A DNA stretch of 64,000 nt from Ascidia mentula. Its lineage: Eukaryota > Chordata > Ascidiacea > Phlebobranchia > Ascidiidae. The notes beneath the pieces are model-generated. The model did no database searches. It was given only the letters and a program-made list of their open reading frames with translations, and was not told where the DNA came from. The position numbers were made by a program, and so were the translations under genes. This document shows, piece after piece, positions 23,679 to 44,462 of this stretch (position 1 is its first letter; the number at the start of each line of letters is the position of its first letter). Location of the stretch: positions 21,466,001 to 21,530,000 of the forward strand of contig OX387201.1 in NCBI GenBank assembly GCA_947561715.1, written 5' to 3'.

Positions 23679-25036
23679 ATCTTGCATCAGTTTATCAGTG
23701 CTTATAATTGTATTCAACATGGAAAAATAAGCAAGCTTAATCCTCTTCCCATATCTTACTTTAACGATTTACATTTGGACTTTATGTGTATGGCAATGAT
23801 TGGGAAATATTATGCACTTTTCTTTACTAGCGTGTACTCTTATTTATGCATGCATTTTTATATTTAATATGTGTATATTTAAATACATACAATGGGGACA
23901 CTATACTTAATTCAAATATGTAAACAAATGCTGTAATTTGATCTGATTTAAATAATTGTATCAACTAATTATATAGAAACCCATCTGTCTCAAATCACCA
24001 AACTGCACTATGGTGTATTGGGTATTTGAGGTTCCCACCTTCCTTCACTACTGGCCCCATCTTAGGATTTATATTGAAGAAAATTTCTAGATCTGCAAAT
24101 GCTCGTTTCGAACTCTTTTCAATGAGAATAATTGAACGCAACAACATCAACCTGTAATGCATTGGTGTCAACCGGAAGGTTTAACGAGTACACATACATT
24201 AATAAAACAAATTCATGCATCTTTGGATGAGGTTTAGTGTAATTTTGTGGATTGCAATAAAGCTACTGGGTGTACTGTTGGTAAAACCCAAGTATTGCAA
24301 GAAATGAATCGCAGAAGTGCTGTTAATGCACCGGTGATTATACTTTTGTTCCCGCTTGTTTTCCAAGGAAGTGTTTGTTTGGAAAAAGTTTGTATCTTTT
24401 CAATATTAGCAATGCGCCATAATTGTGTTACAACAACAACAATTGCTTTTTACTAAAGCTGCAACAATCAAACTTTTAACGCCATTTAAACAGTTCAAAT
24501 CTACGTTGGTTTTTGCACTTCACACAATCACCTGAGGGCGTCAAAGATTTATATTTGATTTCAATTGAGTGACGCGCTTTGCGTGCAAACGAAATTCCCA
24601 TTTAAGGACCTGACTAGGATATCCTGGGTATTATTTAAAAAATAAATAAATAAATAAAATATACCGAAACGTTTTTGTAAAAACCCATTTGATAAAAATT
24701 CCAATTAAAAAAACACTACAATTTGCGCATGTAAATGTACCAGGTACAAACAAATGCAGCGACGAAAACTGTGAGGACATTTTGGACATTCCGCACGAAC
24801 CAATAGCAATTTTGTTGTATATACTTGCACACTTGTCTAAAGAATGAAATTCTACAAGAATCTATTTGACCAGCAAGAATCTATTTGACCAACGAATTCA
24901 GGGCCAGCACCCTAGTAAGGGAACAAGCGAACCATATTTGCTTTATGACGTCACAGTCATGTATCGCAAACAAGAACTTTGTCCTGACAAACAATTGGTA
25001 TACACAACGATAAGGAAATTTCAGCACTAACTGGCA

Positions 25037-25073
25037 GAGGCGGGCTTGTAACCATTTTTATGACACGTGTCAC
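25037..25073 (+). repeat. Left terminal inverted repeat of the KDZ element
   Basis: It reads GAGGCGGGCTTGTAACC followed by a T-rich spacer and TGACACGTGTCAC, and pairs with the reverse complement of 36556-36592. The outermost bases differ between the two ends, so the exact boundary is set by the target duplication. Confidence 0.8.
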
Positions 25074-25290
25074 TAAGTGACATATGTCACCAAATCGAGC
25101 ATGTCACTATGCATGTCACCAAATTTCAGCATGTCACATTGCGTGTCACCGCATGTCACATTGCGTGTCACCAGTATGTCACATTGTGTGTCACCAACAT
25201 GTCACATTGCGTGTCACCAGTATGTCACATTGTATGTCACCAGTATGTCACATTGCGTGTCACCAACATGTCACTTTGTATGTTACGGAG
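25060..25290. repeat. Left subterminal TGTCAC repeat array
   Basis: At least fifteen TGTCAC motifs recur at roughly 10-22 bp spacing, mainly as alternating CATTGCGTGTCACC and AGTATGTCAC/AACATGTCAC words. The right end has a smaller equivalent (about 36451-36570, as GTGACATGCAAAGTGACA). Subterminal repeats of this type commonly serve as transposase binding sites; here that role is inferred. The frames open across this array are only the repeat read in different registers. Confidence 0.75.
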
Positions 25291-25291
25291 A

Positions 25292-26446
25292 GACACCAAA
25301 TTCAAAAACATTTAGTCTTGATGTAGCAATATATTTTAAGACATATAACTTATTACTTATTGTAGCTTGATGTGTATGTAATGAAGCTCACTTTCTGATG
25401 TTTTCGTTTTTACCTTGATGGATTAAACAAAAAACAACCATTTGGAAAAAACTTTTATTGGCAATGTTGCAATTGAAGGCAAATAAGAGCTACAGGGAAA
25501 GACAATACTGCGTTCAGTTAATTGACATAACTGCGATTTGCCTGGAGTTTACCTTTAACACAGAGCAACCCACCAAAATGCCCACCAACAAAAAATCATG
25601 AATAGTAATTCACTTTTCTGAAAATTAAATATTGTGTGACATCTACTTACAATAAAATAGTAAAGCATTTCGTTGCAATATAGTGGACAAATACTTGCAA
25701 GTTTTGTTAATGCAGATATTACATAGGAAAATCTAGGTTACAAAAATCACTGTAGTGTCATGATATTGCAGTACAAGCAGTAAAATAGAATGGGTTGAGT
25801 GCAAAACATGTGGAGCATATAATTGTACAGACAAACGCCAAAGCTAATAACGTGCTAGCAGACATGAGCAAACGTTTCGACCTTGCACACAACATGCCCG
25901 ACAAGCTTGTTTACCCCTTTCTGGGCATAGCCATTCATTCCTTCCATGTACAATGCTTGCTCATGTCTACTAGCACATTGTTAGCTTTGGCGATCTTTAA
26001 AAGAATGGGTTAAGGTTTGCAGTTTTGGTGTAAAATTTTAGCACCTTTTTGGGCAACATACATTGGCAGATTTTTATAATGCTGAGGTAAACACACTTGT
26101 AGCAGGTGATAGTATTCACTCATTTTCATCTTAGACAACATCCAGTTAATGCGCTAACAACACTTTGCAAAAGTTGGTGGATGTAAAGTGCCATTCCATG
26201 CTGAAAAATTCTATATTCATATACTACTAAAAGGAAGAATTATGAAATATATGGAAGAATTATGTGTGTACTAAACCATGTTTAAAGCAGTTTAAAGCTC
26301 AATAAATAGTATAAAAAATTAAAATTTTCATTGGTGGTAATGTCACAGCACAGTCAAAAATATAACATACACTTTCACATTTAACAAATCACATTTAGAA
26401 ACACGGAAGCATTTAAAATATCACACAATGGTAGATGTAGAAACGG
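25292..26446. other. Left non-coding part of the KDZ element
   Basis: AT-rich sequence between the subterminal array and the palindrome. Apart from the inverted repeat at 25836-25992 I see no feature or gene. Confidence 0.5.
25836..25992. repeat. 36-bp inverted repeat with 85-bp loop inside the KDZ element
   Basis: Bases 25836-25871 pair with 25957-25992 with about three mismatches. The transcript would form a long stem. No gene is recognisable around it. It may be a short foldback insertion or a structured regulatory segment of the element. Confidence 0.7.
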
Positions 26447-26824
26447 TATATACTTTTAGTTTGGGAAACAGTAGTCTTCTTGGAATCATTTCTAACTGCT
26501 ACCCCGACACCTGCATTATAAGGTTGCTTTATTACATAGGAATATGCAGTAAATATGGGGTGCTTCTAAGAAGACATTCAGCCAAGAGGAATCATAGGCA
26601 ATGGGCATAGGTGTGCCCACCATTCCTACAATGCTGAGGCTCAATGCCTACATTAACCGGTAAATACACACACAAATACAGATCTTAGGTGTGGTGTTTC
26701 TCAATTGAACTTTGCAACTATTATAGTTATATCCATATTCAAATTAACCATATTTTCACAACTGTGTAGTTTACTTACCATGTAATTTATAAGTAAAGTG
26801 GCATATCCAACATAACACTGCAAC

Positions 26825-27085
26825 TTGCACTTGAATACCCCAGTACAATACACCATTGCACATGCTCTTGTCATTCTGGAAAACTTTCATCCAGAATTGG
26901 TGAAAATCCAAAATATTCACATTGTTTCCCTTTTCCAAAAAATGATTGCAATCAGCCGTGTGTCACATGCAGATTTCCAAGTTGTAGATGATCTGCTAAA
27001 TCAAGAAGGTTTGAGGAAAATAACCCCCAAAGCTCCAATTTTATGTTTGTTTCATCTGCAGCAGGCAGGATTAAATACAAGCTAG
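26825..27085 (+). other. Reading frame in left palindrome arm
   Basis: An 86-codon frame from MHLNTPVQYTIAHALVIL to a stop. The mirrored frame in the right arm (27863-28150, minus, 95 codons) differs by a 27-nt in-frame segment and a few substitutions. Open frames preserved in both arms suggest a former exon, but I do not recognise the product and cannot exclude chance. Confidence 0.3.
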
Positions 27086-27862
27086 TAAGATGGGCACTAG
27101 CAGCATTTCACTACACAATAACTGTTTCTAAAGGCACCTCCTGATTTACTTACAAACATTAAAAGTTATGTGTCTGTTGTAGCCTACTGTTCACATGAGA
27201 AATTTTATTCCTCGAAATCGCCTATAACCTAAATCGTAGCATTCTAATTATCTTAATTCCACTAAATAAAATGATTTAGTTAGTAGTCGAGCCCTTTCTT
27301 GCTTCAAAACGTAGATATCAAAACACTGCAAGCAACAAAGTGGTAAACTACGCAAATTCAACCTGTTTGAAAAGTGACATGCAAAGTGACATACAGTTGT
27401 TGAGTTTGGTTGTGAACAACATGTCACATGTCACCACTAGGGGCGCTGTTGAGCTAAACCTAACATCGGTATGTCCATAAGTATGGATAAGTAGCTCAAC
27501 AGCGCCCCTAGTGGTGACATGTGACATGTTGTTCACAACCAAACTCAACAACTGTATGTCACTTTGCATGTCACTTTTCAAACAGGTTGAATTTGCGTAG
27601 TTTACCACTTTGTTGCTTGCAGTGTTTTGATATCTACGTTTTGAAGCAAGAAAGGGCTCGACTACTAACTAAATCATTTTATTTAGTGGAATTAAGATAA
27701 TTAGAATGCTACGATTTAGGTTATAGGCGATTTCGAGGAATAAAATTTCTCATGTGAACAGTAGGCTACAACAGACACATAACTTTTAATGTTTGTAAGT
27801 AAATCAGGAGGTGCCTTTAGAAACTGTTATTGTGTAGTGAAATGCTGCTAGTGCCCATCTTA

Positions 27863-28150
27863 CTAGCTTGTATTCAATCCTGCCTGCTGCAGATGAAACA
27901 AACATGAAATTGGAGCTTTGGGGGTTATTTTCCTCAAAACTTCTTGACTTAGCAGATCATCCACAACTTGGAAATCTGCATGTGACACACGGCTGATTGC
28001 AATCATTTTTTGGAAATGGGAAACAATGTGAATATTTTGGATTTTCACCAATTCTGGATGAAAGTTTTCCACACTTCCGGATTCTGGTGATGTTTCCAGA
28101 ATGACAAGAGCATGTGCAATGGTGTATTGTACTGGGGTATTCAAGTGCAA
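27863..28150 (-). other. Reading frame in right palindrome arm
   Basis: Mirror of the frame at 26825-27085, longer by nine codons (a repeat-like SPESGSVE insertion). No domain is recognised. The right-arm sequence carrying it is continuous with the palindrome, so it need not be an independent gene. Confidence 0.3.
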
Positions 28151-28525
28151 GTTGCAGTGTTATGTTGGATATGCCACTTTACTTAAATTACATGGTAAGT
28201 AAACTACACAGTTGTGAAAATATGGTTAATTTGAATATGGATATAACTATAATAGTTGCAAAGTTCAATTGAGAAACACCACACCTAAGATCTGTATTTG
28301 TGTGTGTATTTACCGGTTAATGTAGGCATTGAGCTTCAGCATTGTAGGAATGGTGGGCACACCTATGCCCATTGCCTATGATTCCTCTTGGCTGAATGTC
28401 TTCTTAGAAGCACCCATATTTACTGCATATTCCTATGTAATTAAGCAACCTTATAATGCAGGTGTTGGGGTAGCAGTTAGAAATGATTCCAAGAAGACTA
28501 CTGTTTCCCAAAGGAGTATACTATG

Positions 28526-29749
28526 GTATGTCACTTGTAAAATATGTTAGAATGCCGTTTGTAATGTACACATCTGTAGCTAGTTTGGGGACACATCGGG
28601 AGAATTGCATTATGCTTGCAGCAGCAGCAGCAGCACAGAAGTGCAATGTTGGCAGTTGAAGGTAAAGAAAAAGCTTGGCAATTAATAAAATTATTTTACT
28701 TTGTACAAGTAATCTATTAAAAGAAAAAATCTATAGGAAGTGTACAGTGCAACATCTCAAAGAGGTGCATATTAATAAAACCAAAATGTTTACACACCTA
28801 TAGTTGAACGAATTTAGTGCAAAGCTAGCCAATGAAAAATATTCTTCATAAATACCTTTGCTACAAAAGGAAAATAAATGGATTTGTACAAGGTTTTTGT
28901 GTTATTTACTGTTAATAATAGTCGTGTTTAACGGACTGAAACTGTCCGGGTTGCAATTTTTTGGCCTGTGCTGAGGCCGCATCACTTTTATAAAATTTAC
29001 TGATAATCTGTGCAAAAATAATTAACAAATATAATAACATACAAAACAAATTCGGATAATCCTTATTGTTAACCAAAAAACATCAAAATTGGCTGATTAC
29101 ATTTATGTTATGTGTTTCAGTATCACCACCACTAACATTAGAAATGTTTCAAGTGGAATACTGTTTCTCAACATATTTGCAGATGGTTAAGGTGGAATTA
29201 TGAAACAGCCAATTCCTGGATACTTTCTTGTGTTTCATCCTTGTGTTTCATCACTGTGTATCTCCTGTTCCAATTTTACTTCTAAATGAACAATGGTGCT
29301 CACCCTTTGTATTTCATGCAATTTATCAGTTGGACAATCCTTCCCCTATTTTGTTCATAAGCTTTTAAATGTTCGAATCATGGGTAACATTAAGGTTACT
29401 ATTTGTCATACACATATACAGCATGTTTTTTGCAATTTGTATTCCACACGTCAAAGACGGCAAATATCACAAAAAAAATCTGATTGGCTCAAATTTAATG
29501 AAGCAATTGATGCACATTCCTTGTGTGCCCATCTACCACATCCATCACACAATACCTGCAATGGTTAAAACATTTGTTGGAATTTATGTGTTGGGAGTAT
29601 TTCGCATCAAGTTACACAAAATAAATACCCATTCCACATTTCGCTTCTTTGATGCAGGCGGAATTTCATTGCTGCAGTTTATGCATAAATTTTTTACTGC
29701 ATTAATATCTAACATAAAATATTTAGTTTAGCCCTAATATAAAATGATG
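28526..29749. other. Segment between palindrome and transposase 3' end
   Basis: AT-rich, with a short (GCA)n run near 28618-28636. Two overlapping plus-strand frames at 29293-29731 have no recognisable motif and no supporting splice structure, so no gene is called. Confidence 0.45.
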
Positions 29750-32700
29750 CTATTTGAGGCACAAAATGACAACTGTACCAGAAGAATCTAATAATAGATT
29801 TCCAATTTCTATTCTATAATTGGCACAAGAAGCTTTGTCAGTTTTTGGAAAACTGTTGTTGTTAAGGAAATTCATAGCTTGCTGCAAAAAAAAATGTTTT
29901 TTAATCTCATTTCCTGCACAAGCACATGTAAATTTAGGTAATTTTATTACAATTGCCTACCTTCAAAACTAGTGGGCCACAGTTGTGTCCATCAATCTGT
30001 ACTGCATGTTTGTCGTAATTTACTTTCCACTCACCCAAACTTCGAATTTTTTTATAAAATTTGCACATTGATCTAAAAATTTGTACACAGCACGCCATTT
30101 GAAAACCGACCAGTAAGTAGTTCACATGGTGAAGCAAAGATATATATGTACATACATACATATGCACATAATAAAACTGTCAATCTACATCTACCTGACT
30201 ACCTCACACTGCAATAACTCTGTTTAATGCTATATTATTTAGGTATACAGTCCAAGGTTCTGAAAGCATTTCATACGAAATAAATAAAAACTTCCATACT
30301 TCCAGTTTTCAATTGTTTGGTCCGAATAAGAACGTTCATGTCCCAGGGGGTCATACATATGCATGATTTTTTGTTCATTATCTTTTATCTGAAACATTAC
30401 AACTTTAATATCTTAGAAATGTAAACAATTTCACCTTTTTACGAGAAGAATCCAGTGGTTTGAATTTACATGCAGTGGTGTAATAAATGAATTCTCCATG
30501 ATTGATTTTGCCTGCACGAAGTAATACAATGAAATATGTTTGACAAAGCGCAGAGAAGACTTATTTTTACACTAACCAGGGTTCTTGTAATCATTGTTCT
30601 AAATTTACCCTTCCACAGCCACGCAGTTGAATAGAGAGTGGATATGGCTTTGATTTTTTTCTGTACGACCCAGTACGTTATAAAAGTTTTCAAAAGAACA
30701 TTTAGCTGCTAGTCATATACATACAAGTTACTGGCTTTAATTTCAAAACAGGTCATTAGCTTTTACATTATCTTACCTCTTTACAGATCACTTCAACAAC
30801 AGCATCCATTATCTGCAGGCACAAAAAAAAGGTTTTAATTGATGACAATTTGTACATTTAACCTACTCTGTCATCAAGCCAATTGCCTTCAATCCCTAAA
30901 AGTGCTTTACTGTCAAATATCATATCTTCCACCACTGCCTCCACTCGATTTACATTACTTTTTTTTAGTGTATTCCATGCTTGTGATATGTCTAAACAAC
31001 TGCAATAGGTGATGATTCTGCATACCACTTTGCAAAACTCTACCTTCAAAATGGTGTGGTAATTTGTAAATATTTCTGGTACTGTCACACTTGGTTATAG
31101 TAACTGCACTGGATGCCTGCATGGAAGAAATATCTTTGTTCTGTTTAAAAGTAATGATTAATGTTTGTCATACAAATTTACTAAAGTAACCTTTTCTATC
31201 GCATCTGCACTGGATGCCTGCATGGAAGAAATATCTTCGTTCTGTTTAAAAGTAATGATTAATGTTTGTCATACAAATTTACTAAAGTAACCTTTTCTAT
31301 CGCATCTGCACTGGATGCCTGAATGGAAGAAATATCTTCGTTCTGTTTAAAAGTAGTGATTAATGTTTGTCATACAAATTTACTAAAGTAACCTTTTCTA
31401 TCGCATCTGCACTGGATGCCTGCATGGAAGAAATATCTTCGTTCTGTTTAAAAGTAATGATTAATGTTTGTCATACAAATTTACTAAAGTAACCTTTTCT
31501 ATCGCATCTGCACTGGATGCCTGCATGGAAGAAATATCTTCGTTCTGTTTAAAAGTAATGATTAATGTTTGTCATACAAATTTACTAAAGTAACCTTTTC
31601 TATCGCATCTGCACTGGATGCCTGAATGGAAGAAATATCTTCGTTCTGTTTAAAAGTAGTGATTAATGTTTGTCATACAAATTTACTAAAGTAACCTTTT
31701 CTATCGCATCTGCACTGGATGCCTGCATGGAAGAAATATCTTCGTTCTGTTTAAAAGTAATGATTAATGTTTGTCATACAAATTTACTAAAGTAACCTTT
31801 TCTATCGCATCTGCACTGGATGCCTGCATGGAAGAAATATCTTCGTTCTGTTTAAAAGTAATGATTAATGTTTGTCATACAAATTTACTAAAGTAACCTT
31901 TTCTATCACATCTGCACTGGATGCCTGCATGGAAGAAATATCTTCGTTCTGTTTAAAAACAACAGTTACCAAAAGTCAAAAATCACTGTTACACTATAAA
32001 GAGCAACCTTGTTCAATTTATCACTTTGAGCATTGTTCTTTCCAACAATTCTCCTGTCTACAAACAAAATTAGTCACACAAATTAGAAATTGCAATTTTA
32101 TTGGTATTGATGAAATGTACTAAACCAGGTAAAAGACAAAAAGTTATAATACCTTTCACAATTGGAGTTACAATTCCCAAACAGTCAGTTGTAATGTTTG
32201 AAAATCTCCTTTTTAGCTTTTTTACAAATTTTTCATTGATGTCTTGGTTACGCAGGTGTAGTGTAAGCCTGCTTATGAAAATGTAGTTCACAAAATTCAT
32301 TCCACACACTGAATACCTAAAATAATAAAAAATTAAAAAAATTTGTTGTTGTACTACAGGTAGTAGATCTTACCGATCCTTTGACATATCTGCATTTGTT
32401 TGCTCACAAATGCTTGTGTTTACCATTAAATTTGTGTTTTTAATGTCCCTGAATGTTGTTGCTGGACCACGTTTCTTGGATTTTATGTGAAAAGAATCAC
32501 AAAGACTGTAATGATTTTTGGAAGAAGAATGCATGTCCACTTTTACAGTTGGCAACATGCCCTCTTTCTCCAACTTTAAATTTTCATCATTCCATTCATA
32601 CAACATGCCATTGTATGGCCAAAACATATTGGCCAGTCTGTTTTCTCCATGCAAGGCAACCTTTTTTCATATGACATGTTTCAAATGTAAATAGGCCATT

Positions 32701-35700
32701 GCAACATAAAACACTCACCTGGGATGCAATGTCACAAATTATAAATTTTGGTCTTTGTGCAAATGACAAAAGTCCATCTATATAATCCCTGGCACTTTCC
32801 TGGCGCAGAAGGCATTTCATATACACACAAATTCCATGGATGCATCTAAAATGCACAATCCCACCTACAAGTGAATTACATCACAAAAACTTATAAAATA
32901 ATAGCTAAGTAATCTTTGGTTAAATTAAATTACTGTAGAACTGTGTAACCCACCTCCACATTTCTTAATGCTTCGAAATGCTTTCGGAAAAAAATCCTTG
33001 AAAAGAAGCAGTTCCATCAGCTCATTTATAATGTCGTCACTACTTCCATCACATTTAAGGCCAAATTCAGTGCACAACTGCTTAAGATTGTGGGCATTTC
33101 CCTGTATGAAAAATTTAGCAGTGGTCTGAGTCAATAAATAATTTTTAACAGCAGTAAAAAATGCAGTTATATTATTTTGTATACATCAGCAAGCACAGAA
33201 GTTTGCTTTAAAATTCAATAATATCATGTACATTGACAGTCTTGGTAATTTGTTTAGAGATGTTTTTTTCAATTTACTTTGTTTCCACTAAACAAACTGT
33301 TCATTATGTCTTCATGAGACAAATTCTTGTAAAAACTAGATTTTTGGCTTAATGGTTTTGCTTTGTTCAGAACATTTCCCTTTTTAAATTCTGTGTTGGG
33401 GATTTCATTCGAAATCCTTGATTTGTGTCCAATCCAGGGCGAAATTGTTTCGTAATTTATAGGTACCTTCCAAGGATTGTTCGAAGGGGCTATTACAAAA
33501 ATACAAACAAATTAACTAAGAAACATGCTAAACTATGTATTTGTACATGTGATTAACAGTACCAACCAATTCACAAATTTAGTAATTAACTAATTACTAA
33601 TTAACTATTACCGAAAAATCCTCTTCCTATAATCTCTTTTTCATATAGAAGCCACAGATTGTCCATGTTAACAGTTTCTTTCCATTGTGTTTGCACTTTT
33701 TTGACAGACTCAACTTGAACACACACAAAAAAGCACAGATAGGTTTTAGCATGGTTATGTGATGACAGTTATTTAGCACCTGGTCTTAAACAAGTGTTTT
33801 TCCAGTTACCATCTCCAACAATTATTATTGGATTATATCCACATTTGTGACACACAAAATTGTATTCAAGCTCTTGTAAAGCTACAAAATGGTACACACC
33901 ATTTCGTATATCGTTTACTGGTACACTTTTGTCGCCAAAAATTAACTTGAGGCTTCTTTCAACTGCGACATGATTCTGAAAGCGAAAAAGGTTTGCCAGA
34001 TCCCAGGATAAATGTTGCACAAAAATTACTGACTTTTATGCCTCTAACAAAATATGAGCAAAGCTTTGTTGTCAAAAATACTGAATTGTTGAAATTGTGA
34101 AAGCCACTTTTGTAATCCTGGAATCGAAACTTTATATCACATTTGTTACATTTTTTTCCAGCGACTTGAACATCTTCCAAGGACAAAATATGTGATAAGT
34201 TGTGCACCACAATATTATAAAAATTGTTTATTACTTTTCCAAATATTGCCGAAACCATACACAGTAGCATTAAATTCTCTTAACAATGTCAAAGAACTGA
34301 AGCAGGCTGGGCAGCTCTTTTCAGTGGCAATGAGTGGACCTAATGGTGGATTCTCATTCAGAAGTTCTGGAGGTAAATTTGCCGGAATTCTCTTGCATTT
34401 AAGATAATAATCCATCAAAAAATGGTCCGATTTTGATGGAGTAAAACCACCAAACCTACAAAAAGTCATGTACTTGTATCTGTTAATAATACTTTGTTAT
34501 TTTAGCACATTGACTACTGGATAAAATTCAAACCTGTCCCTTTCTTCTCTAAATATATCTCCCTGAAATTGCATCATATACCACTTTGCAACTGCTTCAT
34601 GTATACATGATCGATTGCATTTGGAAGTGGGACACTGGCAAGACCAGTAACCACTTGCCCTTTCAAATGAAACTCTAATCCTTTGCAGACGGCAAAAATA
34701 TTTCACCTGACCAGTATAGACAGAGTAATAAAATGTGTTTAGGCTGTAACCTAAACTTTGAAAATCTAGGTACACAACCAAGGGGGTGGACTCATTTTCA
34801 CTTGTGCTAAACATTTTTTCGACAGAATTTTTTGTTTCCTTTGATATTAAATGGATTTCCACCAACTTGTGCAAAAATTCTAGCTTTAACAGTTTTTTTT
34901 CCGTCTCCATTTGTGCATTTTCCAGTGCCCTCAAATGTTCGCATTCCAAGGATGGGTTGGATAAACCAATGGCATTCATTAGGTCCTGACATTCTGTATT
35001 GGAGCAAAATATCATTTGCTTGGCAATATTTTTTTGCACATGTATGGGTGCAGCCAATCCAACAGAAGATTTTGCTACAGCAAAAATCCCTCTGCTTTGA
35101 TCTATGGAAATGCTTGGAAATTTATTCTCCAGTATTTCATGATTTTGCTGGGCATGTCTTCGCAAAGACGAAAGATGATTGTAGCTTTTATCGCAGTGTA
35201 AGCAATTGTACAGTTTGTTTTGTTTGCTTCCTGCAAATTTGTTTACAATTTTATTAAATAACTGTGCTATTCATTATTGTTTTCTTTTAAATATGTTTCT
35301 TGCTCAAAAACCTTCTTGAACAACATTATGCCCTACCTTCACTCACTGTATTCTCTGACTTTGCAGTAAAAGTTTGTTGCTGTCCTTTGCATTTTTCTAA
35401 AACATAACTTCTGCTGCAATAAATACTTTATTCAAGTTGTGCATGTTGATTATCACTACACTTTAGTGCTTGTATACAGCAACCATGGGACATTGGTCTC
35501 TTAACACTTTTTCTTACAAGCAGTTTTCGGTAATTATTTACAACTGGTATTGGTAAAAACTAACTTATCTATAAAACATAATTTCCAGCAACATGGCCAA
35601 CCAATAACTTACTTATATGATTTTTGAAGTTAGGCATTCTAGTTATTATTTTTTTGCATTTTGGACAATGATAGTGACCTCGTTTTATTTTTTTGTCCGT

Positions 35701-35903
35701 GTAATCAATACACGTCTGGTCATAACACGGCATCTCTGCATAGATAAAAGTGAATGTCATAAATTGTCAATCTTCACAAAGCTTGTAGGGTATGTACCTT
35801 TTTTGTTATCCATTTCTTTGTTGCACAATTTGTATACCTTTAGCATTAATTTTATTTCAAAATCCACTGTATCACACAAAAGACAACAAAATTTTATATA
35901 CAT
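29750..35903 (-). CDS. KDZ/Zisupton-like transposase with SWIM, SAP and Ulp1-like protease regions
   Basis: Exons (5' to 3'): 35798-35903, 35613-35735, 34534-35230, 34235-34455, 34034-34173, 33780-33975, 33612-33713, 33278-33489, 32954-33101, 32719-32864, 32374-32660, 32153-32316, 32008-32057, nine mini-exons (31105-31948), 30867-31043, 30777-30812, 30577-30705, 30435-30511, 30300-30388, 29961-30072, 29750-29881; about 1262 aa. Order: C2H2 fingers (YNCLHCDKSYNHLSSLRRH), SWIM finger (CQCPTSKCNRSCIH), Cys-rich region, first acid in IIIVGDGNW, SAP-like NLKQLCTEFGLKCDG, second acid in FIICDIASQV, third in SICEQTNAD, 17-aa repeats, then Ulp1-like protease with NHW, YDPLG and QIDGHNCGPL supplying His, Asp, Gln and Cys. 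The 30435/30388 junction is one base out of frame with the splice sites I see. First exon and one or two acceptors are uncertain. Confidence 0.8.
31104..31957 (-). repeat. 101-bp tandem array of in-frame mini-exon plus mini-intron
   Basis: Nine units start at 31104, 31205, 31306, 31407, 31508, 31609, 31710, 31811 and 31912 (the outer two partial). On the transposase strand each is a 51-bp exon encoding NEDISSMQASSADAIEK and a 50-bp intron starting gttactttag and ending taaacag. Full exons are 31191-31241, 31292-31342, 31393-31443, 31494-31544, 31595-31645, 31696-31746, 31797-31847 and 31898-31948; a ninth (31105-31140) is shortened to 12 codons. Since 51 is a multiple of three and all join in phase 0, any number can be included or skipped. 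The 31306 and 31609 units share the same variants, giving a 303-bp higher-order repeat. Confidence 0.9.
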
Positions 35904-36555
35904 AATTATATATAAAATATATATATAATTGTAAGTCACACATAATTAAAATGGATCCTTGCAACACCTTATGCTTTTGGAATGCTAGATATCACCACCG
36001 AATACTTCATAACGTTTAAATGACCTAAACTTAATAATTGTGTACCTCATTCAAATGCCTCATTTAAATAACGGTATATAGCCTATTACAATTTAACACA
36101 ATGTCCAATATGTAGCTTTTTGAACCCTGTTTAATAAAAATGTATCAACATAACATAAGCTTGGACACAAATGTTTTAAATAATAGGCAGAACAAAAACA
36201 ATATAATAGTTCATTTGAAGTCATTGTATCGTGATGGTTGTCATCTTATTCGTATGCTGCAGGTAAGCAGTCAGTTATATGTCCAATGTTCTACTACATC
36301 TGCTCTGTCACCTTTGCGAAACCATTCTCTTTTGTCATAGAATTGAAAGTTCATCTTTGCAGCAATATGAGCAATTTGATGTATTGTTCTTATTTCTTCA
36401 AGGCTTAATTTCCACCTTTTTGATATCACCCAGTACCACAAACAAACAAACTGACATGCAAAGTGACACGCACCAACGGTGACATGCAAAGTGACATGCT
36501 GAAGTTTTGTGACACGTGAAGTGACATGCTTGGAAAAAGTGACATATGTCACCGT

Positions 36556-36592
36556 GTGACATGTGTCACGAAAACGGTTACAGCCCCTGTTG
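36556..36592 (-). repeat. Right terminal inverted repeat of the KDZ element
   Basis: On the minus strand it reads CAACAGGGGCTGTAACCG, a short spacer, then TGACACATGTCAC. It is the same length as the left end and best conserved at GTAACC and the TGACAC palindrome. Confidence 0.8.
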
Positions 36593-37992
36593 AACTGGCA
36601 CCTGCAACATATATTGAAAGATGCAAGCCTTAAATGCTGTTGACAAATTATTAGTATTGTAAGTTAGTAGTTTTTAGGTGTGAGTATGATTTTGATAATA
36701 AAAATACAGCTAATTAAAACAAAAGAATCTCACGAATAAACTATTGTAGAACATAATTTTGAACATGAGTAACAACATAGAATTGTTGTCGAAAGAACTG
36801 AGAGATTTGTGTGATAAGGAAGGCAAGGAGAAAGACCCAGTAGAATGTGCACAAATATTCTACAAACTGGCTCAAGAATACAGCAAGCTTCATGTGAACC
36901 TCGACTGTAAATATGACCAAAAGATGACATTCATCAGAAGTGCAATATTATTCAATGCTGCGCTTGTAAGAAATCCAGAAAATAAAGATGAAATAAAGGA
37001 AGGACTTAGAAAAGTCTGTGGACAACTTCTTAAAGTTGCAAATGCTGCAAAATCAGAAAGTGACTTGGTACAAAAGGCACAAGAAGTTTACAGTAAAATA
37101 GAAGGTTTGAGAAACAAAGTCAAGTTTTCTCTGCAACAATTGACACCAGAAAACCTAACTAGGCAGCAACATGTGGATATTATAGAAAACATGCAGAATA
37201 GAATCAATGCAGACTACAAATTACTTATGTCTGACATAATGGATTATTGTCTTTCTGTCATGGGCACTCCACCATGTGAGTATGCCCTGATGGGAATGGG
37301 TTCTTTGGCAAGAAATGAAATAACCCCATACTCTGATTTTGAACACGCCTATCTATTGGAAGATAATGTTGACAAAAGAGAGGATTTTAAAGATATTCTA
37401 GAATACTTTCGATGGGTTTCAGTTATTTTTCACATGATCATCATTAACTTGGGTGAAACCATTGTTCCCTGTGCAACAATTCCACACATTAATGATTGGA
37501 AAGTTAAAGAAAACAATTGGTTTTTCGACAAACACACACCAAGAGGTGTCTCATTCGATGGCATGGTTCCTTATGCATCAAAATTTCCACTTGGAAGAAA
37601 TGAAACAGAAGATAAACCGTGGAGAACTGAGTTGATTAAACCAGTGTCGGGAATGCTTGAATATCTAAAGAGTGATGTAGCAATCAAAAATGGATACCAC
37701 TTAGCTGAAGTTCTCGAAAACTCTTGCTTTGTGTCTGGAAAGAAAGCAATTTATGTTGAATATAAGCACCCCATTAGTCGACAATTAGTCGTTAGATAGC
37801 GCACGTTAGCTGACACAATTAGCGATTTAAACGGGAAAATAGAATCTATCGCTCTATTGTTGGACGCTATCACCGTTTCGTGTTGTATTTTACTAATGGT
37901 CAACGGTCATATCTGTGGATGTGTAATGCAATAATATTGACGATGAATTAATTCAGGTAATTCAACCCTTAAATTAAAATAACAGATATAAC

Positions 37993-38211
37993 GTGGAACT
38001 GGCAAGTATAAGAGCGCATAAACCATGTAAAAAATATACATGGTATTCTCATGTATCGACTGTTTCACCTCGTGATAGGGCACTAATATTTTCATTGGAA
38101 AATATAAAACAACTTCCTGGAAAAGTCATAGGTAGCTTAAACTGCCATATGGAGGATATTAAAGAAGGATTCCAGGTATATATGTATCTACTTTTATTGT
38201 TATTGTGCTGA
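37993..38211 (+). other. Reading frame conserved in both inverted repeats of the 5.2-kb element
   Basis: Seventy-two codons from MELASIRAHKPCKKYTWYSH, with a possible splice donor after KEGFQ (gtatat). The mirror copy at 42529-42747 on the minus strand encodes the same 72 residues although the arms differ elsewhere. It may be a terminal exon of the parental transposase or a captured host exon. No family recognised. Confidence 0.35.
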
Positions 38212-38865
38212 AAAGAGTTGGGATTGACACTACATTGCAACTGAGTGTATTTTTTATTATAATTGAAAAAAAGCATTTTTGCTACTCTTTCAGCCCACAT
38301 TACATATGGTCAAACAAGGGGCCAATAATGTGTCTCACAGACCAACAGTCTGCAAATAGAGAGTTGCAGCCCAAATTTGAATCATAAAACCATAACCATC
38401 TATCCACTTGGGTTGCTAATTAGATGTAAATGCAATGATGTTTTTTTACAGTATCCCAATGCTTACATATTCGAAAGTCTTAGTGTTGTCAATATTGCAG
38501 AACAGTCAGTTAATTTTTCTTACTATTTAACCTTTGTAATATGTAGGTCACCATCAATTTTGACAATAGTTGGTGATCGAAACGTTGTTTGGAGCTGCAT
38601 TATGTTTATTCTTCCTTGAGCATCAGCTGTTTTGGGCCTGGGTGGACAAGAACAAACAAGCTTAGAAAATTGTGGTAATTATGTTGCTAAAAGTTGTAAT
38701 GTAAATTTGATATCAGTACCTCCTAATACATATTTACAGTGCATGTATAATTTAGGCTTGATATTTTTTGTGTGGTACAAGTACAATTGTTATTGAGCCT
38801 GGCATAAATGTGGCCAAGTCTTGGTTCATTTTTTTTCTAATTTGTGCACGATAATACTGTACAAG

Positions 38866-40484
38866 TATTTTGTTCTATTGCTATATTTTGTTACTTAAAG
38901 GAAAATATGATTTTACTGTCACATAGATTTTGAGTTTTCATACAATGGCTGTGAACCGAATTTGTTAATTTAAAGTTACCATTTTGTTAACCTCTTTTCT
39001 GTAAATACGTATAATTTTGCTAATCAACTGATATGTAGTAAAATATATTTTATATAAATCTAATACCTGAACAAAAATTAGAAAAATTCGTTACTTGTTA
39101 ACAGCATAGGCCTTTGATAACGTTAGCTTTCACAAATTATAATTTTATGCACATGTTCAAATACTTTTTGCAAACATGTTTTGGCAGGGAATTAATGTCT
39201 GTTAATAATAAGGAAACATGGGGAAAGAAAAGCTCAAATGGAAGCATTTTTTTTTCAAATACTGATCTAGTGCTGTAGACAAGAAAGAAGAGCCACAATC
39301 AAGTGCCAACTATATTTCACATACTGGTGGGTGTGCTTCAAGTAAAAAATAAAAAACCTATGTTGCTACAAAGTTAAATTACCTCTATTGAAATAAAATC
39401 ATGTGTATTTTGCACAACAAAACACAAAGAAATGGGCACCGATAAAACCATAGGTTATCGAGTCAGGTATCCTTTATTAATCTCACTGTATTTAACACTA
39501 ATTATTTTAGGTGGTCAAGCAATAGATGGTCGGCTAGCTGAAAGCCCGTGCCACACAACTACAAATATAAGAAGGGAAGTTTAGCAGCATTTGAAATGAA
39601 GTGTGCCCTGAGGCGGAATATTTCATAATTTTGCAATTCAAATCATATTGAAAAAATACCAGCTGCAACTCCAAACACAGCTTTTCCGCAAGTAGCACAG
39701 GGCAACAATTAACATGAAAACAATGGAGGAAATGGGAATGGTAAAGCAGGAGGAGTACCAAGCTTTCAAATGCATGTGAATTTCCCACAACCCAATGGAT
39801 TAACCGAGTTCTACTGTATGCGTAATGAGTATTTACTTTATGTTGTTTATGTGGCAGTAGTAGTGGTGGGATTAAGCCGATTCCTGCAAACCTGTTCTTG
39901 AAATTGTAATGACCTCCGTAAATCAGTTATCCCGGTTAGGAAGCGTATGTACAGGCCTATGTTTCACTTCATGTATTGTATTCTGACTGCTAATTACATG
40001 CTATTGATAGCTTACAACTTTTACAACGTATTGTGCAGAGACAATACATTAGAACTCGTATATAACCAATGGCATAGTGAAAGAATCCCACTACTGGTCA
40101 ATAACAATAATTTTCGTCGAAATTGGCATTTTGTTTGATTGAATAGGTTTCGTTTTTCGGTGTCTATTTGCATGTTTAATGCATTTGCTATTCTGCCAAA
40201 AATCTTTTGCCGGCAAGGTTTTTAACCCTTTTTTGTCGTTTTATAAATTTATAATATGTGCAACTGTTGTTTAGTATCGCTGACGCTGCTTTCTATTTGA
40301 ACAAGAAAATCGAGCGATATTGTTGTGTGTTCAAATCTTCATCAAATTGTGCCTGGGTCTTCGAATATTATATACACAGAATTTCCCAGCACTGGCTGTT
40401 GCGACGCCATTGGTATCAGTGAAACCTGTTGACAGAACAACTCCTATTTTTTTGTAAATTATGGTTTACGTGATAAGCAAGGGA
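38866..40484. other. Inner left part of the 5.2-kb element
   Basis: AT-rich DNA with no gene, no transposase motif and no obvious repeat. Confidence 0.5.
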
Positions 40485-41345
40485 CAATGGGCAAGTGTTC
40501 ATGCGCTTCAGTTTCCTGCATAAAATTTGCGGAATTAAAATGAAAACGGCTTAGTAGGACAACTCGAATTACCTTGTAGTTTGTGTTTTAAAATTTTCAA
40601 GCTAATTGAGTAATAAACAAGAAAACTATAGCGCCACATCATGGTTGCATAAAGGGGCATGACCATTGAGGGTTAGCCTGCTTCGGAAGACAGTAGGCAA
40701 GCGCTGCTCGCTTCTGTCTCATGCATAAAATTAACAGCGTTTTAAACGAAAACGGTTTAATAGAACAACTCTAATTACCTTGTAGTTTATGTGTTGAAAG
40801 TTTCAAGCTAATTGAGTAATAAACAAGAAAACTATAGCGTCACATCATGGTTGCATAAAGGGGCATGACCATTGAGGGTTAGCCTGCTTCGGAAGACAGT
40901 AGGCAAGCGCTGCGCGCTTCTGTCTCATGCATAAAATTGAGAACGTTTAAATAAAAATTGTTGGGTAGGACAACTCGAATTGCCTTGTAGTTGTGTGTTG
41001 AAAGTTTCAAGCTAATTGAGTAATAAACAAGAAAACTATAGCGTCACATCATGGTTGCATAAAGGGGCATGACCATTGAGGGTTAGCCTGTTCGGCAGAC
41101 AGCAAGCAAGTGCTGCGCGCTTCTGTCTCATGCATAAAATTAACAGCGTTTATACGAAAACGGTTTGGTAGGACAACTCGAATTACCTTGTAGTTCATGT
41201 GTTAAAAATTTCAAGCCAGTTGAGTAGGAAACAAGAAAACTAGAGTGTCACATCATGGTTGCATAAAGGGGCATGACCATTTAGGGTTAGCCTGTTTCGG
41301 TGGGCGGTAGGCAAATGCTGCGCGCTTTTGTCGCTTGCATAAAAT
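40485..41345. repeat. Four-unit ~205-bp tandem repeat inside the 5.2-kb element
   Basis: The phrase AGGACAACTCGAATTACCTT recurs at about 40556, 40762, 40967 and 41170. It is followed each time by a block containing AACAAGAAAACTATAGCG, CATCATGGTTGCATAAAGG and GGGTTAGCCTG. Units differ by about 5-10 percent. No coding content was seen. Confidence 0.85.
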
Positions 41346-43281
41346 AACATTATTCTTTTGCGTTGTTCACAAATGGGGTGAGCGATTTTGGGGTGCTTTA
41401 TTTTCGATGCTCGGGGATTAGTACGAACTGCGAAGTTACAAACCACATCAAAATCTTTACTTCAACATCCTTTGTGTGTCTATTGTTGTTGTTTGTGACG
41501 TGAATATCGATAACAATGATGATTATAAAAATAATATGCAGAAATAATTTGTGTCACACTGTCACTTTCGTCGGGCTGTTCTTTGTTGTCTACAGCATTT
41601 TCTAAGAAATGCTTGCATCCCACGTGTTTCCTAAAACATATTTTTTACATCATTTGGCTCATAGCCATCATAAAAAAAATTTAATTAATCTAAGACTCAA
41701 AATTGATCCAATCCGTGCAACAGTAAAATCATAACTTAATAATCTGTTCTTCTGGCATATATAAAACGTAACTTTATTCACCGACGTTTTCGCCTGTTAT
41801 TCAACAAGGCTTCCTCAAGGTGTAAAATCATATTTGCCTCAAGTATCAAAATATACAAAAACTACCAATAAAACAAAATATTTCCACAGGATGATCGTGC
41901 ACAAATTAGTGACCTATCACAATCCCACCTGGAAATAAACCACAATTATGCCAGGCTGAATACCAATTGTAGTTCGCAAAAAATATCAAGCCTTAATTAA
42001 AAAAGGAATACATGCACAGTAAATTTATTTTATGAGGTACTGATATCAAATTTAGTTTACAACTTTTAGCAACAGAATTACCACAATTTTCTAAGCTTGT
42101 TTGTTCTTGTCCATACAGGCCCAAAACAGCTGATGCTTAAGAAAGAACAAACATAATGCAGCTCCAAACAACGTTTCCATCACAAACTATTGTCAAAATT
42201 GATGGCGACCTACATATTATAAAGGTTAACAATAAGAAAAATTAACTGACTGTTCTGCAATATTGACAACACTAAGACTTTCGCACATGTGAACATTGGG
42301 ATACTGTAATTGCATTTACAGCTAATTAGCAACCCAAGTGGATAGATGGTTATGGTTTTATGATTCAAATTTGGGCTGCAACTCTCTATTTGCAGACTGT
42401 TGGTCTGTGAGACACATTATTGGCCCCTTGTTTGACCATACATGGGCTGAAAGAGTAGCAAAAATGCTTTTTTTCAATTGTAATAAAAAATACACTCAGT
42501 TGCAATGTAGTGTCAATCCCAACTCTTTTCAGCACAATAACAATAAAAGTAGATACATATATACCTGGAATCCTTCTTTAATATCCTCCATATGGCAGTT
42601 TAAGCTACCTATGACTTTTCCAGGAAGTTGTTTTATATTTTCCAATGAAAATATTAGTGCCCTATCACGAGGTGAAACAGTCGATACATGAGAATACCAT
42701 GTATATTTTTTACATGGTTTATGCGCTCTTATACTTGCCAGTTCCACGTTATATCTGTTATTTTAATTTAAGGGTTGAATTACCTGAATTAATTCATCGC
42801 CAATATTATTGCATTACACATCCACAGATATGACCGTTGACCATTAGTAAAATAGAACACGAAACGGTGATAGCGTCCAACAATAGAGCGATAGATTCTA
42901 TTTTCCCGCTTTAAATCGCTAATTGTGTCAGCTAACGAGCGCTATCTAACGACTAATTGTCGACTAATGGGGTGATATAAGCAAGGGTCTAAAAACATCT
43001 TATTAAAAGAAGATGAAACTAAACAAATAAAAGAGAGTTTGAAAAAAGATTTGAAGAACTTTAATCCATTAACTACCTTGCCCATGTTTCATGAGAAATG
43101 GATTAAGAATCATGATGGGTTTCCATTCGTGTTCTCCTTTCCACGGAGTCAGGAATTCGACGTCAAACGTTTTATTTATCGGAGTACAAGTCTGTTTGTT
43201 GCTGCCCTTGGAAAGATTAATGATGTTTCAGAAACAACGTCTTTCAACATAGTTCGAAAGTTGTGTGAGAAGAAAAAAATT

Positions 43282-44462
43282 ACATGCGGATACAGACAGA
43301 CCAGTAACCATAATTTTATCCACTAAGTGGCGCAATTTTTCCAGCAACTTTTTTAAAATTTTATTGGTCGGGGTGCATTCCTTGAGATCGACATCCATTT
43401 CAATGCGAAAACTTTTCTTGGAGTAAAAAATTAACAAACATGTCCAAAACACATTAAAAAAAACTTTGTGCCACTCCGAAATACATGGTTGTATTACTTT
43501 TTTTTGCAATTTATTACACGTTCCGCCATTCTAAGCGCTGCGAAACTCACCCAACCATCTATGAAAAGTTACTTGAAAATTATGGCAACCTTAACAAGTT
43601 GTTATCTGATGTCGCATACATAAAAAAGCATATCAAGCACTTCCATATTTAAACTCTGCAACTGAGCTATATGCCAATTGTGCCCAAACAAAGGCTGGAT
43701 TGTTTTCTCACTCATGAATTACAGTGACAATAGACAGTGAGAGATTTTTGTATCGCAATCAAGTTATAACAAGAAATAGGAGTTACGCGGGGTTTTGTAA
43801 AGCTCCATTGTTGCCTGAGGGCACCTCTACAAATTTCAATTAATTTGAAAACATTTGCCGAACTAACAACTAATAGCAAAACAACAACTAATATCTTGTA
43901 AGTAAAGGTTGATTCCCGCCTATCTGTGGGGTGGCTCTTTAGCATCTACCCTACCAACTGATTGGTCGGTTAAAAAATTAACGCTACACTCCTGGTAATC
44001 AGTAAGTTGAGACAGAAATACGCGTGGCTAGTATCACAACAGTATACTTTAATGTAAGTTCCATATGAGGCAAAAATTGACATATAGCTCAGTTGCAGGG
44101 TTTAAATGTGGAAATGCTTGTTCTGCTTTTTTATGTATGCGACATCAGATAACAACTTGTTAAGGTTGCCATAGTTTTTAAGTAACTTTTCACAGACGTT
44201 TGGGTGAGTTTCGCAGCGCTAAGAATGGCGGAACGTGTAATAAATTGCAAAAGAAAATTAATTTAACCATGCCGTTCGGAGTGGCAGAAAGTATTTTTTT
44301 TTAATGTGTTTTGTACATGTTTGTTAATTTTTTACTCCAAGAAAAGTTTTCGCGATCTTACAGATTGCACCCCAACTAAAAAAAATTCTAAAAAAATTGC
44401 TGAAAAAATAGCGCCACTTAGTGGATAAAATTATGGTTACTGGTCTGTCTGCATCCGCATGT
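43282..44462. mobile_element. 1.18-kb foldback element in gene B copy 3
   Basis: The ends read ACATGCGGATRCAGACAGAC and inverse, flanked by a 9-bp duplication AAAAAAATT (43273-43281 and 44463-44471). The terminal inverted repeats extend about 390-400 bp (43282 to about 43685 and about 44075 to 44462), leaving a short unique centre. There is no coding capacity. A 9-bp duplication with long inverted repeats suggests a non-autonomous Mutator-like element. The A-run at the target makes the duplication length slightly uncertain. Confidence 0.85.

What the first reader, a model, noticed from the sequence alone, without database searches (positions are those of the whole stretch)
31104..31957. Tandem array of an in-frame mini-exon with its own mini-intron inside a transposase gene
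Each 101-bp unit is exactly one 51-bp exon plus one 50-bp GT-AG intron on the transposase strand, and all joins are phase 0. The repeat therefore adds 17 residues per unit without disturbing the frame. It sits between the transposase core and the Ulp1-like protease, so copy number or exon skipping would tune the linker between two enzymes. Shared variants at 31306 and 31609 show a 303-bp block duplication, implying recent expansion. A minisatellite whose unit is a complete exon/intron module is uncommon.
Basis: seen in the sequence. Interest (0 to 1): 0.9.

Follow-up and report, generated by a model that had tools for sequence, protein, structure and literature searches.

The report
Repeated mini-exons in a sea-squirt transposase
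A jumping gene of a sea squirt carries a string of near-identical small exon-plus-intron copies in the stretch between its transposase and its protease part, and related jumping genes carry different-looking repeats at the same spot, so this looks like a stretchable joint that is repeatedly rebuilt; no RNA evidence has yet been examined.

Summary
The array is real: 101-bp period, 31104-31958. It lies in an 11,556-bp DNA transposon (25037-36592) with an 8-bp target duplication AACTGGCA, whose empty sites survive in two neighbouring genomic repeats. A hand-built 32-exon, 1312-aa minus-strand gene is open throughout: C2H2-like fingers, CxC4, transposase-like core, linker, Ulp1/C48, PHD-like end. 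The array supplies eight exons, plus the start of a ninth, in the linker. Its phase-0 joins follow automatically from copying a segment around one phase-0 intron; what counts is a length divisible by three and comparison with relatives. A family 56% identical in its core has a 90+55-bp exon-intron array at the same place; its 71%-identical sister has a 36-bp array in one open frame there; a decayed relative has a two-copy duplication; a Clavelina homologue has eight 24-residue repeats. The 51+50 split is not certain: an in-frame acceptor 24 nt downstream scores better and gives 27+74. Residues drift freely; frame persists. Best reading: a length-tolerant spacer that repeatedly acquires repeats. 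Splicing and tuning are untested. New variant of a known kind (repetitive exon-intron genes).

The parts
25037..36592 (-). DNA transposon (11,556 bp) inserted in the third copy of a 10,879-bp genomic tandem repeat; gene on the minus strand
   Evidence: breakpoints against copies 1 and 2, which are empty sites
25029..25036 (.). left target-site duplication AACTGGCA
36593..36600 (.). right target-site duplication AACTGGCA
25037..25280 (.). one end: imperfect terminal inverted repeat and CATGTCAC-type subterminal repeats
   Evidence: 35 of 48 terminal positions match the other end; local alignment of about 135 columns; TRF 25127-25278
36447..36592 (.). other end, same kind of repeats inverted
29451..35813 (-). 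32-exon gene, 1312 aa, no stop, all introns GT-AG (hand-built model; 1296 aa if exon 26 starts at 30660 instead of 30708)
   Evidence: relatives aligned
34534..35813 (-). exons 1-4: C2H2-like fingers (by eye; only sub-threshold Pfam matches)
34034..34455 (-). exons 5-6: CxC4 cysteine cluster
   Evidence: Pfam CxC4 40.5 bits at aa 346-427; exon mapping
32153..33975 (-). exons 7-13: transposase-like core
32008..32057 (-). exon 14 (50 nt), ends phase 0; start of the linker
31949..32007 (-). intron 14 (59 nt)
31104..31958 (-). 101-bp tandem array; the 50-nt introns lie between the array exons listed below
31898..31948 (-). array exon 1 (exon 15, 51 nt; 27 nt if the inner acceptor is used)
31797..31847 (-). 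array exon 2 (exon 16)
31696..31746 (-). array exon 3 (exon 17)
31595..31645 (-). array exon 4 (exon 18; shared variant at 31625)
31494..31544 (-). array exon 5 (exon 19)
31393..31443 (-). array exon 6 (exon 20)
31292..31342 (-). array exon 7 (exon 21; shared variant at 31322)
31191..31241 (-). array exon 8 (exon 22)
31044..31140 (-). exon 23: start of a ninth unit running into unique linker sequence, ends phase 1
29779..30991 (-). exons 24-30: Ulp1/C48 protease-like region; the Pfam match (aa 1127-1240) covers exons 27-30; H, D, Q, C align with a solved homologue
   Evidence: Pfam C48 27.6 bits; ChlaDub2 9qte alignment; mapping
29451..29708 (-). exons 31-32: PHD-like finger (just under Pfam's curated cut-off)
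   Evidence: 23.2 bits against 24

Best explanation
This is the linker-coding part of an apparently intact, recently inserted CxC4-class (KDZ-like) DNA transposon. A segment spanning one phase-0 intron with a piece of exon on each side was once duplicated in tandem, creating a new internal exon whose two ends necessarily have the same phase and whose length happened to be a multiple of three. Unequal exchange or slippage then amplified this exon-intron unit, including one three-unit (303-bp) block. If all units are spliced in, the eight full units add 136 residues (17 each; 72 in all if the inner acceptor is used) of polar, probably disordered spacer between the transposase-like core and the Ulp1-like protease. 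The protein appears to tolerate, and in this transposon clade repeatedly acquires, repeats at this point. Shown by sequence: array, frame, splice dinucleotides, position, fresh insertion, and different repeats at the same place in relatives. Inferred: splicing into mRNA, disorder, founding duplication, spacer role.
For: Array and variants. Gene open through 32 exons, with CxC4 and C48 above Pfam cut-offs. Array donors score 5.3 bits against a median of 5.0 for the 23 other introns of the gene. Relative L023 (56% core identity over 225 columns) has six 90-nt units separated by five 55-nt introns; in my model its linker is stop-free from exon 13 to exon 24, with the first unit fused to the exon before it, and ends in the same phase-1 ...PHHF(K/E)|D junction. 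L025, sister of L023 (71%, support 0.999), has ten 36-bp units inside one open frame of the same linker. L026 (66%, decayed) has a two-copy exon-intron-like repeat there: 29 bp, 93%, 116 bp apart. Clavelina P0001 has eight 24-residue repeats there. L003, a truncated close copy, has two units with an intact intron. The unit sequences look unrelated between families (by eye). The insertion is young: 2 mismatches in 4,454 bp of flank against copy 2, 3 against copy 1.
Against: No RNA was examined. Splice sites were chosen by hand. In the small matrix the 51-nt acceptor is weaker than an inner in-frame one at 9 of 9 window sites. In L023 the outer acceptors score low and in 6 of 6 units the best inner AG would leave 22 nt and break the frame: either the matrix is poor or the L023 reading is wrong. 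Residues are not conserved: in L023 12 of 13 variable codons change the residue, and exon sites vary (16 of 90 over six units, 12 of 90 over five) about as much as intron sites (8 of 55). All three codons at which each L003 unit differs from the window unit change the residue, though L003 is a dead copy. Homology of exon 14/intron 14 to the unit tail, as the founding duplication predicts, is not significant in the window (199 and 660 of 2000 shuffles as good) and only suggestive in L003 (27 of 2000). Two Styela homologues and intronless L033 have this linker without tandem repeats (best self-match 11-14% against 70-75% in P0001 and window), so repeats are not required.
Confidence: 0.63

Rival explanations
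1. The array is an intronic minisatellite: exon 14 is spliced straight to exon 23 (both phase 0) and the units are removed as one intron of about 870 nt or skipped as exons. The open frame of the units is a relic or chance.
For: Exon 14 to exon 23 is itself in frame, so frame alone cannot tell the two apart. A 17-codon open unit of length divisible by three is not very unlikely by chance. Unit residues show no constraint. In L023 the acceptor the matrix likes best would break the frame.
Against: Such an intron would far exceed the other 23 introns of the gene (52-227 nt). Array donors are as good as the others. Relatives carry open in-frame repeats at the same place, including one in a single open frame needing no intron (L025) and one in a predicted Clavelina protein.
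Confidence: 0.2
2. The unit is a 27-nt exon (ASSADAIEK) plus a 74-nt intron, because the inner acceptor CCATGCAG|GCA is the one used, or both acceptors are used so that 8 residues per unit are optional. (A variant within the best explanation, not exclusive of it.)
For: The inner acceptor outscores the outer at 9 of 9 window sites for three matrix widths. A 74-nt intron is typical for the gene (median 68), and 50 nt would be its shortest.
Against: The matrix rests on 22 introns and in L023 prefers an acceptor that would break the frame, so it may mislead. Window and L023 units both start AAC or AAT after CAG at the outer acceptor. In one of two L003 units the two acceptors score alike.
Confidence: 0.35
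3. Linker length is selected: copy number sets the distance between transposase core and protease, and arrays are kept because they allow fast adjustment.
For: Repeats at the same point in all five linkers examined of two joined clades (window, L026, P0001; L023, L025), with different units. Unit length divisible by three and no stop in 24 of 24 units judged (8 window, 6 L023, 10 L025).
Against: Freely drifting, unselected spacer repeats predict the same. No copy-number series within one family is available; the only close copy found is truncated. Other homologues do without repeats.
Confidence: 0.2
4. Assembly artefact: units collapsed or multiplied by the assembler.
For: Tandem repeats are error-prone in general.
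Against: The array is under 1 kb. Units carry patterned variants, and other loci show the same design.
Confidence: 0.03

Closest known systems
Repetitive exon-intron pairs of spider silk genes (Argiope MaSp2, flagelliform spidroins; PMC9779670, passages read)
   Same: Tandem exon-intron units with homogenised introns, larger ensemble repeats, independent evolution in two clades, rapid unit turnover.
   Different: There the repeats are the bulk of a structural protein. Here they are a linker between two enzyme-like domains of a transposon protein, and a sister family (L025) has a repeat without introns at that place.
Internal tandem repeats (minisatellites) in human genes, e.g. morpheus/NPIP (PMC2812944, outline and sections 9 and 11 read)
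   Same: Minisatellite expansion changes gene structure and copy number differs between paralogues.
   Different: In the sections read the morpheus repeats lie within one exon; here each unit carries its own intron.
KDZ (Kyakuja-Dileera-Zisupton) transposons (PMC12730594, passages read)
   Same: 8-bp target duplication as reported for Zisupton and a Dileera element; CxC4 cysteine cluster associated with KDZ transposases (Pfam description).
   Different: No KDZ-core Pfam model matched; multi-exon animal gene with C48 and PHD-like parts; no TET/JBP match.
Intron gain by tandem genomic duplication (PMC4974935; search listing and start of abstract only)
   Same: A tandem duplication that changes exon-intron structure.
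   Different: Here an existing intron appears to have been copied with its exon flanks; this is inferred, not shown.

Membership tests
KDZ transposons | 8-bp target-site duplication (Zisupton and a Dileera element; Kyakuja 7 bp) | tested here: met
   AACTGGCA on both sides, single copy at two empty sites; literature values
KDZ transposons | KDZ-associated cysteine cluster (CxC) | tested here: met
   PF18717 CxC4, 40.5 bits, cut-off 26.9
KDZ transposons | Match to a curated KDZ transposase-core profile | tested here: not met
   No KDZ-core model among the 7 families listed at E up to 1; that Pfam holds such a model is recalled. I therefore call it KDZ-like / CxC4-class, not a proven KDZ member
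KDZ transposons | Terminal inverted repeats (reported for Zisupton; the Kyakuja families described lack them) | tested here: met
   35 of 48 terminal positions, about 135-column imperfect alignment; literature
KDZ transposons | Catalytic acidic residues of the core | not tested
   No structure made; assigning the conserved D and E residues would rest on recall
Ulp1/C48 peptidases | Profile match and H-D-Q/N-C residues | tested here: met
   PF02902 27.6 bits, cut-off 20.7; H, D, Q, C aligned with ChlaDub2 9qte; activity not testable
Repetitive exon-intron genes (spidroin-like arrangement) | Tandem exon-intron units, in frame, with homogenised introns | tested here: met
   L023; exact splice sites not settled
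Repetitive exon-intron genes (spidroin-like arrangement) | Units present in mature mRNA | not testable with these tools
   RNA-seq ERR10378036 is listed but could not be reached

The most novel reading that the evidence does not exclude
In one clade of sea-squirt transposons the joint between transposase and SUMO-type protease is a hot spot where exon-intron (or in-exon) arrays arise, amplify and are replaced again and again, so that linker length changes by whole in-frame modules. Each window unit also offers two in-frame acceptors, so splicing could adjust the linker by 8-residue steps as well: a transposon-borne, mutationally and possibly splicing-tunable spacer.
Probability: 0.2. Interest if true: 0.72.

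Novelty: new variant of a known kind. Interest (0 to 1): 0.5.

Why it matters
Genes built from repeated exon-intron units are known, but I saw none described for a transposase in the listings of the searches made (openly licensed PMC papers only). Here the unit, copy number and even the design (with or without introns) differ between sister families at one homologous place, and empty sites, a young insertion and relatives sit in one good assembly. That makes it a compact natural series for two open questions: how exon-intron repeats are born and homogenised, and whether linker length between two enzyme domains is selected or merely tolerated.

Tried and rejected
Founding-duplication homology between exon 14/intron 14 and the unit: tested by shuffles, not significant in the window (199 and 660 of 2000 as good), suggestive in L003 (27 of 2000); kept only as inference.

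Copy-number comparison: the genome searches (capped lists) found one full copy, one truncated close copy (L003, two units, a lower bound) and diverged families, so no series could be made.

L046-L050 and L035, taken in as possible further linkers, match L023 by DNA only at about its first 130 bases and from its protease part onward, apart from a repeat stretch in L048, and look like internally deleted derivatives. In that call two of the seven protein queries (L023 exons 12 and 13) were translated in a wrong frame and are worthless; the conclusion rests on the DNA comparison. L024 matches L023 only to 33 bases past exon 13. L027-L032 gave core or end fragments and no linker that I could compare. 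None of these is counted as a linker. P0004 and P0005 end before the linker and P0006-P0008 are arranged otherwise or cut short; they are not counted either.

The substitute is a non-random 252,119 bases already held (window and 19 loci chosen for KDZ matches): 15 arrays with period 30-300 and at least 3 copies, 3 of them in linkers. With roughly one array per 21 kb outside linkers and about 2.75 kb of linker in L023 and L025 (window left out because it was chosen for its array), about 0.13 are expected and 2 were seen, a rough probability of about 0.01 calculated by hand; the sample is biased.

The automatic gene model preferred 27-nt exons and dropped exons that relatives support; I replaced it by hand but kept its hint about the inner acceptor.

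Literature: KDZ or Zisupton with Ulp1, none held; with tunicate, one paper on another family (listing only); earthworm metallothionein minisatellite (PMC12783039, passages) concerns an intron repeat, not an exon unit.

Full report
WHAT IS THERE. Tandem Repeats Finder places the array at 31104-31958, period 101, 8.5 copies, score 1668. On the minus strand it reads as eight 51-nt exon-like units, each followed by a 50-nt GT...AG intron, and a ninth unit start that continues into unique exon sequence to 31044. Five of 8 exons and 6 of 8 introns are identical.

WHERE IT LIES. The window contains three copies of a 10,879-bp genomic tandem repeat; copies 1 and 2 differ at one base. Copy 3 is interrupted at 25037-36592 by 11,556 bp flanked by AACTGGCA, which is present once in copies 1 and 2. 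The ends form an imperfect inverted repeat with many TGTCAC subterminal repeats. The flanks differ from copy 2 by 2 of 4,454 bases and from copy 1 by 3, so the insertion looks recent, unless gene conversion has refreshed the flanks. So the window is most likely on chromosome 5 of that sea squirt; this is inferred from lengths.

THE GENE. I built a 32-exon model by hand: 1312 residues, no stop, every intron GT-AG. Pfam gives CxC4 (40.5 bits, cut-off 26.9) and Peptidase_C48 (27.6, cut-off 20.7) above threshold, and PHD just below (23.2 against 24). No KDZ-core profile was listed, so I call the element KDZ-like. The closest proteins found are from tunicates: Clavelina 50%, Styela 41-42%, Ciona 45%. 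Through most of exons 4-13 the model aligns with them, which supports the splice sites there. Exons 2 and 3 are less certain, and exon 26 may start 48 nt later, as P0001 lacks its first 16 residues.

WHY PHASE 0 IS NOT REMARKABLE. A tandem copy of any stretch containing one intron and some exon on each side makes an exon with the same phase at both ends, and all later copies inherit it. The only coding demands are a length divisible by three and no stop. By the same logic exon 14 to exon 23 is also in frame, so the window alone cannot show that the units are spliced in.

RELATIVES. L003 is a truncated close copy with two 51-nt units and one 50-nt intron, 93% identical over 470 bp. L023 (56% core identity) has six 90-nt units separated by five 55-nt introns between its exons 13 and 23; in my model its linker is open throughout, the first unit is fused to the preceding exon, and its phase-1 junction after PHHFK matches the window's after PHHFE. 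It also shows a three-unit higher-order repeat (435 bp). L025, sister to L023 at 71%, has instead ten 36-bp units inside one open frame. L026, 66% and decayed, has a two-copy exon-intron-like repeat. Clavelina P0001 has eight 24-residue repeats there; its DNA could not be read. Two Styela proteins and the intronless L033 have the linker without repeats (best self-match 11-14%, against 75% for the window and 70% for P0001). The core tree groups window, L026 and P0001 (0.995) and L023, L024 and L025 (0.999); these two groups join at 0.861. So repeats occur in all five linkers examined in this joint group and in none of the three examined outside it (P0002, P0003, L033). With so few linkers this is suggestive, not proof, of a clade-wide habit.

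CONSTRAINT. In L023, 12 of 13 variable codons change the residue and exon sites vary as much as intron sites (16 of 90 and 8 of 55). Length divisible by three and absence of stops hold in 24 of 24 units judged in the window, L023 and L025. This fits a spacer whose residues hardly matter; recent homogenisation alone could give part of it.

THE ACCEPTOR PROBLEM. A small matrix from 22 other introns prefers an inner acceptor (CCATGCAG|GCA) 24 nt downstream at 9 of 9 sites by 3 to 9 bits. It is in frame and would make the unit 27+74. In L023 the same matrix prefers, in 6 of 6 units, an acceptor that would leave 22 nt and break the frame, while the 90-nt reading rests on low-scoring acceptors. So the matrix is unreliable, or the L023 units are not all coding; I cannot decide. 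The shared start CAG|AAC or CAG|AAT in window and L023 favours the outer acceptor. Retaining an intron in the window would bring a stop.

LIKELY MECHANISM. Founding duplication around the phase-0 intron (inferred; statistical support weak), amplification by unequal exchange or slippage with three-unit blocks (block pattern shown), tolerated or favoured because the point lies between two separately folding parts (inferred). Tuning by copy number or splicing is possible and untested.

COMPARISON. Repetitive exon-intron pairs with homogenised introns, evolved independently in two clades, are described in spider silk genes (PMC9779670, passages). This case works like those in gene architecture; what is new is the setting in a transposase linker and the presence of an intron-free repeat in a sister family. 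I saw no report of such arrays in a transposase in the listings, which cover only openly licensed PMC papers.

VERDICT. Observation confirmed, interpretation partly supported, new variant of a known kind, interest 0.5.

Noticed in passing
window 1-48802: 10,879-bp genomic tandem repeat, three copies in the window; copies 1 and 2 differ at 1 of 10,879 bases. It contains an open reading frame (36750-37799) with a DUF294 nucleotidyltransferase match. Copy 3 alone carries three insertions, and its right part is more diverged from copy 2 (32 mismatches in 4,342 aligned) than its left (2 in 3,278).
   Followed up: partly
window 37769-42974: Second insertion in copy 3: 9-bp target duplication ATATAAGCA, near-identical inverted ends (CCCCATTAGTCGAC...), with a 204-bp x 4.1 tandem array at 40503-41349.
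   Followed up: no
window 43284-44462: Third insertion in copy 3, flanked by about 11 bp (AAAAAAATTAC) on both sides, ends inverted (ATGCGGATAC...).
   Followed up: no
window 26460-28512: About 2-kb near-perfect palindrome (arms 98-100%, 35-nt centre) inside the transposon, downstream of the gene; perhaps a nested foldback element.
   Followed up: no
L033 and L034 (G000:C69:9193000-9202900, C71:6980000-6989900): Two copies of an intronless KDZ-like element (1434-aa open frame in L033, 1041 in L034), each with 57-bp tandem arrays in opposite orientation on its two sides.
   Followed up: partly
L046-L050, L035: Apparently internally deleted, probably non-autonomous derivatives of the L023 family that keep about 130 bp of one end and the part from the protease onward.
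   Followed up: partly
L023:4669-5193: Three of six L023 units (2, 3, 5) contain VKTE, which fits the SUMO-acceptor consensus as I recall it; curious beside a Ulp1-like protease, but absent from the window unit.
   Followed up: no
P0008 (protein from an ENA source): A CxC4 protein with long acidic tandem repeats (by eye) at its N-terminus rather than in the linker.
   Followed up: no
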